Part shown: in pieces, positions 7,600 to 57,623 of the stretch
Numbering within the stretch: the first letter of the stretch is position 1
Layout of the letters: every line of letters starts with the position of its first letter
Origin: Myxococcus fulvus
Lineage (GTDB): Bacteria > Myxococcota > Myxococcia > Myxococcales > Myxococcaceae
Length of the DNA: 64,000 nucleotides
Direction: 5' to 3'
NCBI RefSeq assembly: GCF_900111765.1
Contig: NZ_FOIB01000008.1
Location: 248,001-312,000 of the forward strand
Position numbers and translations under genes: made by a program
The notes under the pieces: generated by a model
Told to the model about the DNA's origin: nothing
The model's database searches: none
What the model saw: only the letters and a program-made list of their open reading frames with translations

Positions 7600-8505
7600 T
7601 TAACGGACGTTGTAGGACTTGCGGATCGGCGCGCCGTTGCGCTCGATCTCGATTTCGATGCGGGAGGAGTCCTTCATCTTCGAGTAGACCTCGAGCGCCT
7701 TCTCGGGGCTGTTGAGGTCGAACCCGTTGATGCGGCGGATGACGTCGCCGTTCTGGACGCCGATCTTCGAGTAGATGGAATCCGGGCGGATGGAGAAGAG
7801 CTTGAACCCCACCGCCTGACCGTCCTTGAAGGCCGGGACGATGCGCGCCTGCATGGCCACGTCGTTGAGGTTGTTGAGCGTCTTGTCGATCTCCGCGCGC
7901 GGCACTTCGTACTCGTTGTCGCTGACGGCGCGGATGCCGCTGGGGGACGCGGTGTTCGTCTGCGCCACCGGAGGCGTCGGCGGGGTGAAGGCCTGCGCGC
8001 CGTCACCCGGGTTGCCGTCGATGAACTCCTTGCGGCCCCCGTTGAGGATGATGACGCGCTCACGCTCGATTTCGAGCACGGTGGCGCCCTGCAGGGCATT
8101 GCCCACCATGTACGTCTGCGAGCGCTGCGTCACCATGTCCTGGACCGACGCGAAGGACCAGTCCGGGTTGCTCGCGACGAGCGTGCCGAGCAGCTTCACC
8201 CGCAGGCCGCTCTTCACCGGGGCGGCGTTGGGGTCCACCTCCGGCGTCGTGGGCTCCCTCACCGCGACTTCCGGCTCGGGAATCTTGATGCCCGTCACCC
8301 GTGACAGGCCCTCCATGTCTGGCAGCGCGAGCGCCGCCTGCGCGGGCCGGTTCGTCGGCGCGCGCGCGGTGGCCCCCGATGACGGCACCGGGGAGATGGA
8401 GGATTCGACGAACAGGTTCACCGTCTTCGCCGCCAGCAGCGCGACGAGCAGGATGAACAGCAGGTTCACCGTCCAGAAGTATTTGCGAAAGAAGAGTTCC
8501 ATCAC
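7600..8505 (-). CDS. gspC: Type II secretion inner-membrane protein GspC
   Basis: 301 residues. A short cytoplasmic end is followed by one transmembrane helix (about 11-31, TVNLLFILLVALLAAKTVNLF), a Pro-rich linker, and the homology region (about 110-165: VKLLGTLVASNPDWSFASV, a typical GspC HR motif). A C-terminal PDZ domain follows at about 215-295 (QAVGFKLFSIRPDSIYSKIGVQNGD). GspC links the inner-membrane platform to GspD and takes part in substrate choice. It is the first gene of the operon, with a sigma-54 promoter 31 bases upstream of its ATG. Confidence 0.94.
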   Translation of the reverse strand: MMELFFRKYFWTVNLLFILLVALLAAKTVNLFVESSISPVPSSGATARAPTNRPAQAALALPDMEGLSRVTGIKIPEPEVAVREPTTPEVDPNAAPVKSGLRVKLLGTLVASNPDWSFASVQDMVTQRSQTYMVGNALQGATVLEIERERVIILNGGRKEFIDGNPGDGAQAFTPPTPPVAQTNTASPSGIRAVSDNEYEVPRAEIDKTLNNLNDVAMQARIVPAFKDGQAVGFKLFSIRPDSIYSKIGVQNGDVIRRINGFDLNSPEKALEVYSKMKDSSRIEIEIERNGAPIRKSYNVR

Positions 8506-54281: not shown

Positions 54282-54397
54282 CGCAGGATGTGGGCCCGCG
54301 GGGTGTCTGGCTCCGTGGGCCCGCATGGGCGGGGCGCACTCTGGGTGTGTTAGGGTGGAGGGTCCGTACCACCCGAAAACAGTCCCTGGAGGCACGA

Positions 54398-54694
54398 ATG
54401 CAGGCTGGAAGGTTCGTCAGCGGTGCGTTGCTTGCGGTGGGGTTGATGCTGGCGGGTTGTGGTGGTCCCCTGGAGGAAGACCTCGGGAAGCAGGAGTCCA
54501 CGTCACGTGAGGGCCTGGTTCCCGACTGCAGCCTCACGTCGGCGGGGACTGTCTATTACACCTCCGCGACGCGTCTGCGCATCGTGGGCTACCGGGGATG
54601 TGGTTGTGGCTCCTGGACGAGCTGGGGGACGATCTCCACGTACTCCCAGCCCACGAATGCCTGCATTCCGCCGGTCGGCATTCCGGAAGACTGA
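54398..54694 (+). CDS. Small cysteine-rich lipoprotein (second of three)
   Basis: 98 residues from ATG 54398 (CTGGAGG upstream). The lipobox LAGC gives Cys21, followed by GGPLEEDLG. The mature part of about 78 residues has four cysteines, including the close pair CGCG (in YRGCGCGSWTSWG), and aromatic residues. This suggests a compact disulfide-held domain on the cell surface. It shares the CGGPxL start of the mature protein with the next gene, so the two probably arose by duplication of a signal module. Confidence 0.75.
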   Translation: MQAGRFVSGALLAVGLMLAGCGGPLEEDLGKQESTSREGLVPDCSLTSAGTVYYTSATRLRIVGYRGCGCGSWTSWGTISTYSQPTNACIPPVGIPED

Positions 54695-54716
54695 GGACGT
54701 GCGTGTGAGTCGAAGG

Positions 54717-54747
54717 CGGCCCGTCCAGTGATTTCCTGGGCGGGCCG
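54717..54747 (+). terminator. Hairpin terminator between the second and third lipoprotein genes
   Basis: CGGCCCGTCCAG and CTGGGCGGGCCG pair with one mismatch around a 7-base loop and are followed by TTGTCGTGTT. It would stop most transcripts before the third gene. Confidence 0.6.
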
Positions 54748-54786
54748 TTGTCGTGTTGCTCAACCCGAAGCGTGTTGGAGAGACGA

Positions 54787-55041
54787 ATGAAGGCGAGCGT
54801 CATCTGGGGTGGACTGTTGTCGCTGGGGTTGCTCGTGGGCTGTGGTGGGCCGGAGCTGGACGTCCAGGCCCCCGACGTGGAGACCGCGAGTTCGACGGAG
54901 GAGTTGTTCCCGGACTGTCAGGGCTATTGGGGGATGGGGTGCCCCAGGCCGTACATGGAGGTCCAGTGTGACAACTCCAGCACGGGCCTGCCTGGCTTCT
55001 GCATCTGTCAGCCGGATACGCTCGTGTTCGATTGTCTCTGA
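54787..55041 (+). CDS. Small cysteine-rich lipoprotein (third of three)
   Basis: 84 residues from ATG 54787. The lipobox LVGC gives Cys20, with mature start CGGPELDVQ. Six more cysteines lie in the last 45 residues (PDCQGYWGMGC, VQCDN, FCICQ, FDCL), a density that suggests three disulfides. Its last 34 bases overlap, on the other strand, the end of the terpene synthase gene. No family recognised. Confidence 0.72.
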   Translation: MKASVIWGGLLSLGLLVGCGGPELDVQAPDVETASSTEELFPDCQGYWGMGCPRPYMEVQCDNSSTGLPGFCICQPDTLVFDCL

Positions 55042-57050
55042 GCGCGTGACGGGGTGTCAGCGGGCGCGAGCAGGACGCCGTTGTCATCGGGGTCCTGCTC
55101 CGCGTGGTGCAATGCATAGCGCTGGGTGTCGACATTCGCCCATTCGTTGTAGCCGTGGATCCAATCGCGCAGCCCCGAGATGAAGCCCCGGAGTTGTTGG
55201 CTTGCCCCATGCTCCAGCCGGCTCGCTCGCTGCTGGAACATGAGTATCTCCTCTTGGACCCGTCGAGCGGTGAAGTCGACGCCCTCCTGGAGGGGATGGC
55301 CTCGGGCCACATGGAGGCTGACCATGTTCCGGACCTGGCTTGGGTGCAATGTCTCCACGGCCATGCTGTGGATGTCATTGTTCCAGATGACGATGTTGAT
55401 GGTGTGGTGGAGCAGCCGCTGGACGTCGAACTGGTGGTACTCGTCGGCGGGGACCTTTCCCGCGTTCGCCGCGTCGCACAGGGTGAGGCAGGGCAGTACG
55501 CCGCCGACGTAGCGGCGAAGGGCCTCATAAGAAGGGTAGGCCAGGGGCTCCTTCATGAGGTTGCACAGAATCTGGAGCCCGGCGGCAGAGCCCCACAGCC
55601 GAATTCCCTGGGCAAAGCGCTCGAAGTGCTCTGGGTCGAGCCGCGCCCGCATTCGCTGGCAGATGTCCAGGAACGCAGCCTCTCCGAAGCGAGGTGTCGC
55701 GGTCGTGTGGTTGAAATCGATGACGTCCAGAATCGCAGTGAGATTGGGGAGGGTCTCCTGGGTGACCGCGTCCACCCTGTCCACGAAGAGGTCGTCCACG
55801 ATGAAGTACCAGAGAACGAAGTCCGTGAAGAGCTGAACCAGCTCGCGGTCCGCATGCGGATAGCAGCGGGCCATGAGCCACCCGTACTTCCCGCGGGCGT
55901 GCCGGGCCAGGTGCTTCTCGGAGAGGATGAGCCCCTGTGCTCGAGCCCAGCGCAGCGACTCCTGCTCGACGCCCTCGGCGAAGGGGGCGCATGCGCCTGA
56001 CCACGGAAAGGTGAAGGTGGGGTACCGGATGTGCTCCAGTGACGAAGCGCGACTTTCGAACACGCCGTCGCCCCTCGTGTCCTGGGCTGCGTACTTCGAC
56101 GAGTAGCGCTGGGTGAACATGTCTCCCCAGTCCTGATACCCGCTCATCCATTCCCTCAGTCCGTTGATGAAGGTGCGAAGCTCCTTGCGCCCTGTGCGCT
56201 CCAGGGGCGCGGCCTCTGCCTGGAAGGCGTGGATCTCCTCGTGGATTCTCCGCGCGGTGTAGTCGAGGCCCTCCTGGAGGGAGTGGCCCTGGGCCGCGTG
56301 GATCAAGGCCATGTTGCGGCGCTGGTCGGGCTCGTGTGCCTCGGTGTGGATGCTGTGCAGGTCATTGCCCCAGGCCGCGATGTTGTTGACGTGGACGCGC
56401 AAGCGCTCCAGGGCGGGGTGGTAGTACTCCTCGGGCGTCAAGGGCGCCCCAGTGGCGGCGTCGATGAGGGCCATGGAGGGATTGACGCCGCCGGTGTGTC
56501 GTCGAATGGCGCGGTAGGGGCGCAGTGCGAGCGGCGTTCGGAGGACTTGCCCGACGATTTGCATCCCCGCGGAGCCCGCCCACATGCGCATGCCGTGGGC
56601 GAAGCGTGAGAAATGCTCGGGGGACAGGTGGTCCTTCAACCGTCGACAGATGTCTTGCAGGGCCTGCTCCCCGACGAGGGGCTCGGGGGCGCTCTCCCCG
56701 AGGTCGAGGACATCCAGGAACGCGGAGAGCTGCGACAGCGTGTTGGCGTTGAGCGGATCCACCCGGTCCACGAACAGGTCATCGACGATGAAGAGCCAGG
56801 CGGTGAAGTCCGTGATGGCTTGGAGCAGGGCGGGCGCTGCATGGGGAAAGCTGCGGGCGGCGAAGGCGGCATACCGCGCGCGCTCGCCCCGGGCCCGGTG
56901 CTCCGCCGTGGGGAACAGCCCGTGCTGGCTGGCCCAGGCGAGCATCGTCTCCTCCAGTTGCTCGACATCGGGCGCGCACGCACCCCGCCAGGGGAAGCGG
57001 ATGGCGGGAATCCGAACGTGTTCGAGCTCCGCGAAGAGGGGGACTCTCAT
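55008..57050 (-). CDS. Tandem two-domain class I terpene synthase
   Basis: 680 residues from ATG 57050 (GGAGG upstream). Two homologous terpene cyclase domains, about 1-330 and 338-665, each begin with an LEHxRxPxxxFPWxGACAP block. Both keep the aspartate motif DDLFVD (90-95; 419-424), the NSE triad (N229-D-x-x-S233-x-x-x-E237; N558, S562, E566), an upstream Arg pair and a downstream QRY motif. Geosmin synthase is also tandem, but its second half has an altered DDYYP-type motif, so this is not a standard geosmin synthase. The likely substrate is farnesyl or geranyl diphosphate. No P450, methyltransferase or prenyl synthase is adjacent. Confidence 0.88.
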   Translation of the reverse strand: MRVPLFAELEHVRIPAIRFPWRGACAPDVEQLEETMLAWASQHGLFPTAEHRARGERARYAAFAARSFPHAAPALLQAITDFTAWLFIVDDLFVDRVDPLNANTLSQLSAFLDVLDLGESAPEPLVGEQALQDICRRLKDHLSPEHFSRFAHGMRMWAGSAGMQIVGQVLRTPLALRPYRAIRRHTGGVNPSMALIDAATGAPLTPEEYYHPALERLRVHVNNIAAWGNDLHSIHTEAHEPDQRRNMALIHAAQGHSLQEGLDYTARRIHEEIHAFQAEAAPLERTGRKELRTFINGLREWMSGYQDWGDMFTQRYSSKYAAQDTRGDGVFESRASSLEHIRYPTFTFPWSGACAPFAEGVEQESLRWARAQGLILSEKHLARHARGKYGWLMARCYPHADRELVQLFTDFVLWYFIVDDLFVDRVDAVTQETLPNLTAILDVIDFNHTTATPRFGEAAFLDICQRMRARLDPEHFERFAQGIRLWGSAAGLQILCNLMKEPLAYPSYEALRRYVGGVLPCLTLCDAANAGKVPADEYHQFDVQRLLHHTINIVIWNNDIHSMAVETLHPSQVRNMVSLHVARGHPLQEGVDFTARRVQEEILMFQQRASRLEHGASQQLRGFISGLRDWIHGYNEWANVDTQRYALHHAEQDPDDNGVLLAPADTPSRAQRQSNTSVSG

Positions 57051-57083
57051 GGTGTTCCTCCAGCCGAAGTGTGGTGAGGCGCC

Positions 57084-57209: not shown

Positions 57210-57623
57210 ATGAAGACCCTGACCGAGTACCTGTGGTTCGAAACGAAGCAGCGCCGGGAGCTGGTGCGCCTGACGGACACCGTGGCCTCGCTGGTGCGCA
57301 AGAGTGGCATCCAGGAGGGGATGGTGCTGGTCTCCGCCATGCACATCACGGCGGGGGTCTTCGTCAATGATGACGAGTCCGGACTGCACGAGGACATCTG
57401 GGAGTGGCTCCAGAAGCTCGCGCCCTTCGGTCCGGACTATCGCCACCATGGGACGGGTGAGGACAATGGTGACGCGCACCTCAAGTCCATGCTCGTCCAC
57501 CACCAGGTCATCATCCCTGTCACCGCGGGGAAGCTGGACCTGGGCCCCTGGCAGCAGGTCTTCTACGCGGAGTTCGATGGCCAGCGGCGCAAGCGCGTCG
57601 TCGTCAAGGTGATGGGCGAGTAG
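57210..57623 (+). CDS. YjbQ/UPF0047 family protein
   Basis: 137 residues from ATG 57210. Family blocks: [64 protein letters not shown]. The trimeric family has weak thiamin-phosphate synthase activity in some members; its true role is unsettled. It diverges from the terpene synthase gene across 159 bases. Confidence 0.9.

What the first reader, a model, noticed from the sequence alone, without database searches (positions are those of the whole stretch)
55008..57050. Fused terpene synthase with two complete class I active sites
Both halves keep DDLFVD, the full ND-x-x-S-x-x-x-E triad at the normal spacing of about 140 residues, and the C-terminal RY pair. The halves are clearly duplicates of each other (same opening block, same motif spelling). 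The best-known tandem bacterial terpene synthase, geosmin synthase, has differing motifs in its two halves and uses the second for a retro-Prins step. Two canonical diphosphate-ionising sites in one chain would be a different architecture: one substrate handled twice, two products, or one silent half. No tailoring genes are adjacent, so the product may be a plain volatile.
Basis: partly seen in the sequence, partly recalled or inferred. Interest (0 to 1): 0.85.

Follow-up and report, generated by a model that had tools for sequence, protein, structure and literature searches.

The report
Fused double terpene synthase in Myxococcus
A Myxococcus soil bacterium carries one gene that joins two long-separated terpene-making enzymes end to end, each with its own complete active site, so one protein probably makes two scent-like molecules at once; this has not been tested in the laboratory.

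Summary
ORF 55008-57050 (-) encodes 680 aa made of two full-length class I terpene synthase domains in register at an offset of 329 residues. Each half has DDLFVD at position 90, a sensor Arg exactly 46 residues before the NSE triad, a full NSE triad at 229 and an RY pair at 315. The halves are paralogues (46.5% identical) but not sisters: half A groups with M. eversor copies, and a tree joining A with B is rejected (AU p 0.0003). The gene is therefore a fusion of two already diverged synthases. The joint falls on what was the GTG start codon of the second gene, with no added linker. At the same site beside UPF0047, M. eversor and M. qinghaiensis carry one single-domain synthase, and genome G058 keeps only a 22-codon 3' scar. 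I found no second fused copy in 195 Myxococcota genomes or in a pattern scan of 84,980 genomes. The other two-domain synthases inspected in the phylum are geosmin synthases (DDHFLE/DDYFP) or, once, a relative. Best reading: two independent cyclases in one chain, probably FPP-using, with different products. Biochemistry is untested and the structure models were poor. It is a new variant of a known kind.

The parts
55008..57050 (-). Fused two-domain class I terpene synthase gene, 680 codons plus stop
56064..57050 (-). Half A (residues 1-329), complete class I terpene synthase domain
   Evidence: nearest relatives M. eversor TS3 (72%) and TS1 pseudogene (67%)
55011..56063 (-). Half B (residues 330-680), complete class I terpene synthase domain
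   Evidence: nearest relatives M. qinghaiensis and M. eversor single synthases (57/56%)
56766..56783 (-). Half A Asp-rich motif DDLFVD (residues 90-95)
56502..56504 (-). Half A pyrophosphate-sensor Arg183, 46 residues before the NSE triad
   Evidence: spacing rule from PMC5082573
56340..56366 (-). Half A NSE triad NDLHSIHTE (229-237)
56103..56108 (-). Half A RY pair (315-316)
55779..55796 (-). Half B Asp-rich motif DDLFVD (419-424)
55515..55517 (-). Half B pyrophosphate-sensor Arg512, 46 residues before the NSE triad
55353..55379 (-). Half B NSE triad NDIHSMAVE (558-566)
55116..55121 (-). Half B RY pair (644-645)
56061..56063 (-). Fusion joint: GTG (Val330), aligned without gaps with the GTG start codon of the single-domain relatives
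56071..56076 (-). GAGGGG, Shine-Dalgarno-like, 7 nt before the internal GTG; possible internal start for half B alone
   Evidence: Sequence; function not tested
57057..57061 (-). Shine-Dalgarno GGAGG, 6 nt before the ATG; matches GGAGGTACACC / GGAGGCACATC of the single-domain relatives
57213..57623 (+). Conserved neighbour UPF0047 (YjbQ family), divergent; marks the synteny of the site across the genus

Best explanation
The gene is a fusion of two diverged class I terpene synthase paralogues of a small subfamily found here only in Myxococcus. The second gene's GTG start became codon 330 of one reading frame (shown by alignment). Each domain is inferred to fold as its own alpha-bundle, bind three Mg2+ through DDLFVD and the NSE triad, and ionise its own allylic diphosphate, probably FPP, with the sensor Arg and RY pair holding the leaving diphosphate. 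The two domains are inferred to work in parallel rather than in series, because class I chemistry removes the diphosphate that the second canonical site would need. Half B has diverged more and differs from half A at the residue four before the NSE triad and in helix G, so the products are probably different. Shown: sequence anatomy, phylogeny, synteny, fusion joint. Inferred: fold, substrate, parallel action, two products.
For: All four class I features are present in both halves at the same positions. Each half aligns along its length to solved FPP cyclases such as T-muurolol synthase (profile E 7e-41) and to other class I cyclases. NSE and Asp-rich residues are intact in both halves, whereas the M. 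eversor TS1 copy shows what decay looks like: an in-frame stop, no start codon and a Ser-to-Gly change in the triad. Half A clusters with M. eversor TS1/TS3 at 100/99, and A+B as sisters is rejected, so both domains had separate lives before fusion. The joint aligns codon for codon with the ancestral start. dN/dS of about 0.4 (NG86, rough) between half A and its nearest copy, and between half B and the single synthases, suggests constraint. Half B carries 25 private changes at positions fixed in the relatives against 14 in half A, and a longer branch, 0.47 against 0.18.
Against: No product, substrate or activity is known. The fused form is seen in one genome only, so selection on the fusion itself cannot be measured. 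Half B's long branch also fits relaxed constraint. Both structure models are poor (mean pLDDT 45.5 and 59.6), so the structure matches are only consistent. FPP preference rests on distant homologues (about 25% identity); half A's best solved match is a set of ancestral spiroviolene-synthase designs, which points to diterpene chemistry.
Confidence: 0.55

Rival explanations
1. One half, more likely B, is catalytically silent or nearly so and serves as the dimer partner of the other (a covalent pseudo-dimer).
For: Half B has a longer branch and more private changes, including N190>L519 just after the helix G break and N222>I551 in helix H, positions fixed in all its relatives. Many bacterial class I cyclases are homodimers (background knowledge).
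Against: Every catalytic motif is intact in B, and B still shows constraint against its single relatives (NG86 dN/dS about 0.41). The helix H Asn is not universal: the aligned ancestral SVS protein lacks it.
Confidence: 0.22
2. Serial action as in geosmin synthase: half A makes a neutral terpene and half B reprotonates and rearranges it.
For: It is the only established tandem class I precedent found (PMC6604706).
Against: Half B has a canonical DDLFVD like half A, whereas geosmin synthase C halves in this phylum have DDYFP. Half B is related to free-standing single-domain synthases, which have no partner domain to feed them. Identity to geosmin synthases is only about 25%.
Confidence: 0.12
3. 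The fusion is a neutral accident: half B is still mainly made from the internal GTG, or the gene is a passing fusion on the way to loss, as in G058.
For: There is a GAGGGG/GTG internal start 7 nt apart; G058 lost the gene and left a scar; the clade is patchy and M. eversor has two damaged copies.
Against: The 680-codon frame is intact with no stop, and the main start has its own good GGAGG site.
Confidence: 0.08
4. Assembly or annotation artefact.
For: Only one genome has the fused form.
Against: Mid-contig position in a 530-kb contig; the halves share only 46.5% of residues, too far apart for repeat collapse; the frame is open through the joint.
Confidence: 0.03

Closest known systems
Single-domain terpene synthases of Myxococcus eversor AB053B (L043) and M. 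qinghaiensis QH3KD-4-1 (L042)
   Same: Same UPF0047-side site, same motifs (DDLFVD, NDMQSLPME, RY), 52-57% identical to the halves
   Different: One domain instead of two; uncharacterised
Geosmin (germacradienol/geosmin) synthase
   Same: Two class I alpha domains in one chain; present in the same genome (C27)
   Different: DDHFLE and DDYFP motifs, about 25% identity, about 760 aa, second domain acts on a neutral intermediate
(+)-T-muurolol synthase of Roseiflexus castenholzii (PDB 9hqd, 9hqi)
   Same: Best solved match of the family profile (E 7e-41, positions 17-324 of 335), same motif layout
   Different: Single domain, about 25-27% identity
4-epi-cubebol synthase (NCBIfam NF042951)
   Same: Best NCBIfam model for each half
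   Different: 127 and 135 bits against a cut-off of 500; not a member
Spiroviolene-synthase ancestral designs SVS_A2 (PDB 6tbd, 6tja)
   Same: Best single-sequence solved match for half A
   Different: Single domain, low identity, diterpene lineage

Membership tests
Class I (type I) terpene synthase, PF19086 | Asp-rich motif near position 90 | tested here: met
   DDLFVD at 90 and 419, i.e. 90 in half B numbering (rule from PMC5082573)
Class I (type I) terpene synthase, PF19086 | NSE triad near 230 | tested here: met
   NDLHSIHTE 229 and NDIHSMAVE 558
Class I (type I) terpene synthase, PF19086 | Sensor Arg 46 residues before the NSE triad | tested here: met
   R183 and R512
Class I (type I) terpene synthase, PF19086 | RY pair near the C-terminus of the domain | tested here: met
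   315 and 644
Class I (type I) terpene synthase, PF19086 | Pfam gathering score | tested here: met
   99.9 and 81.4 bits against 23.7
Class I (type I) terpene synthase, PF19086 | Alpha-bundle fold | tested here: inconclusive
   All-helical models whose Foldseek hits are class I cyclases, but mean pLDDT 45.5 and 59.6
Class I (type I) terpene synthase, PF19086 | Turnover of a prenyl diphosphate | not testable with these tools
   Needs enzyme assay
Geosmin synthase | DDHFLE in N half and DDYFP-type motif in C half | tested here: not met
   DDLFVD in both; the geosmin synthases inspected in the phylum keep DDHFLE/DDYFP with one DDHFLD variant
Geosmin synthase | Sequence similarity to geosmin synthases | tested here: not met
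   About 25% identity; NF041168, a 735-position model that NCBI names as an encapsulin cargo terpene cyclase, gives 138 bits against a cut-off of 1200
4-epi-cubebol synthase (NF042951) | Curated score of 500 bits | tested here: not met
   126.9 and 134.8 bits
Family 2 encapsulin cargo terpene cyclase (NF041167/8) | Curated score | tested here: not met
   144 against 400 and 138 against 1200 bits

The most novel reading that the evidence does not exclude
The two canonical sites work in series on a diphosphate intermediate: one half isomerises or elongates the prenyl diphosphate without losing it (a cyclase turned prenyltransferase or isomerase) and hands it directly to the other half, which cyclises it. 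That would be a single-polypeptide class I-class I assembly unlike geosmin synthase.
Probability: 0.06. Interest if true: 0.8.

Novelty: new variant of a known kind. Interest (0 to 1): 0.45.

Why it matters
In bacteria the characterised class I-class I tandem found in the papers searched is geosmin synthase, whose second half does something unusual. A tandem with two ordinary ionisation sites would show that fusing cyclases is a second route to making terpene mixtures at a fixed ratio. The near relatives (single gene, damaged copies, deletion scar) make this a rare case where the birth of a tandem terpene synthase can be followed step by step.

Tried and rejected
An internal duplication as the origin of the halves: rejected by the AU test (p 0.0003). 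Geosmin synthase membership: rejected by motifs and identity. Encapsulin cargo and 4-epi-cubebol synthase: below curated cut-offs. A second fused copy: not found in 96 family genomes, 195 phylum genomes, the GTDB contig pattern scan, plasmids or viral contigs. Whether B groups with the single synthases is unresolved (support 72/20; alternatives p 0.31). Structure prediction with the few permitted rows gave low-confidence models, so pocket volumes were not computed. Searches centred on other phyla were not possible, so a tandem canonical synthase elsewhere in bacteria is not excluded. The listing of PF19086 matches was cut off, so weaker two-domain proteins in the phylum could have been missed. 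Paper searches found no characterised bacterial tandem other than geosmin synthase, but many subscription papers are not held.

Full report
Observation. The minus-strand ORF 55008-57050 encodes 680 residues from an ATG at 57050 with a GGAGG site 6 nt upstream. Pfam finds PF19086 twice and once in each half tested alone. A shift of 329 residues, with no gap, gives 152 of 329 identical positions; 1000 shuffles never exceeded 44 over offsets 300-349. Both halves carry DDLFVD at position 90, a sensor Arg exactly 46 residues before the NSE triad, the triad at 229 and RY at 315, matching the layout given for active bacterial type I cyclases in PMC5082573.

Who its relatives are. The window lies in a Myxococcus-genus genome of 10.8 Mb with 11 PF19086 matches, including a geosmin synthase on C27. 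The genus is inferred from the same-genus genomes that match M. eversor and M. qinghaiensis records. With the full protein as query, only two other genomes in the family or phylum carry close relatives: M. eversor AB053B (three copies) and M. qinghaiensis (one). Nearly everything else is at most about 27% identical over the matched length. No second fused copy was seen. In plasmids the best match was 28.5% and viral contigs gave nothing. Searches centred on other phyla were not possible, so other tandem canonical synthases outside Myxococcota remain possible.

Origin. The halves are 46.5% identical, yet half A is 72% identical to M. eversor TS3 and 67% to M. eversor TS1, and forms a clade with them (100/99). 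Holding A and B together as sisters costs 75 log units, AU p 0.0003. Whether B joins the single synthases (57/56%) is unresolved (72/20). The gene is therefore a fusion of two diverged paralogues, not a fresh internal duplication. Codon alignment places the joint at GTG 56061-56063: GTG TTC GAA AGT CGC... in the window against GTG CTC GAG AAT CGC... at the start of the M. qinghaiensis gene. The end of half A also reads GGC GTG, as does the end of the M. qinghaiensis gene, so a short shared GGCGTG may have guided the event (inference). A GAGGGG 7 nt before the internal GTG could still start half B alone (inference).

Site history. The divergent neighbour UPF0047 is present in 25 of 27 genus genomes. 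M. eversor and M. qinghaiensis carry a single synthase at this spot. Genome G058 has only a 22-codon 3' remnant, HRYLSKYAEQDANDNGVLLAAR, and no other part of the gene. Close relatives of the protein were not found in the remaining genus genomes. In M. eversor two half-A-like copies lie elsewhere: TS1 has an in-frame TGA where relatives have Trp, a Ser-to-Gly change in the NSE triad and no start codon, and sits behind the end of another gene; TS3 lacks the first 34 residues. The window gene itself has lost one base near its 3' end relative to the G058 scar, which lengthens the C-terminal tail by about 17 residues.

Function. Each half aligns along its length to solved class I cyclases. The family profile matches T-muurolol synthase (E 7e-41, positions 17-324), followed by the spiroviolene-synthase designs; 1-epi-cubenol synthase (NcECS) is also high on the list. 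Taken alone, half A is closest to the spiroviolene-synthase designs and half B to T-muurolol synthase. NCBIfam's best model, 4-epi-cubebol synthase, is far below its cut-off for each half. FPP as substrate is plausible but weakly supported. Half B has 25 private changes at positions fixed in the relatives against 14 in half A. At the position four before the NSE triad, which aligns with the site mutated in the SVS A224I structure if that entry's numbering follows the chain, A has Ala and B has Val. These differences suggest different products, but the pocket was not modelled: AlphaFold with four or five rows gave mean pLDDT 45.5 for the full chain and 59.6 for half B. Foldseek still ranked class I cyclases first for both models, which is consistent but weak because superposition was poor for half B (rmsd about 12-13).

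Comparison. The geosmin synthases inspected in this phylum have DDHFLE in the N half (one DDHFLD) and DDYFP in the C half. One paralogue in genome G002 has DDHFLQ/DDFFF. The window protein is about 25% identical to geosmin synthases. It works like two class I cyclases and is a member of that family by every sequence test. It is not a geosmin synthase.

Verdict. This is a genuine two-site fused terpene synthase, new as an architecture as far as the searches reach, with mechanism inferred and not shown. Interest 0.45: an attractive and directly testable enzyme, seen so far in one species.

Noticed in passing
L075 (G000 C1:128.3-133.0 kb): Three neighbouring same-strand single-domain terpene synthase genes with variant Asp-rich motifs (EEHME, EEQFD, DEQFD) but intact NSE triads and RY pairs.
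   Followed up: partly
L077:982-3267: A second geosmin-synthase-like two-domain protein in genome G002, 47-54% identical to geosmin synthases, with DDHFLQ in the N half and DDFFF in the C half.
   Followed up: partly
L076:2934-5057: Two same-strand single synthase genes in G058 whose open frames are separated only by the first gene's stop codon, a near-fusion of another lineage.
   Followed up: no
L069, about 8150-8260 (minus strand): 22-codon 3' scar of a lost terpene synthase at the same site as the window gene.
   Followed up: yes
window 55008-55075: One-base loss relative to the G058 scar extends the C-terminal tail of half B by about 17 residues.
   Followed up: partly
L071:2342-4372 and L040:8319-9308: M. 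eversor has two half-A-like copies away from the ancestral site: one with an in-frame stop and no start codon, one lacking the N-terminal 34 residues.
   Followed up: partly
window 54389-55028: Run of small predicted lipoproteins next to the synthase; G058 has an extra related copy at the same place.
   Followed up: no
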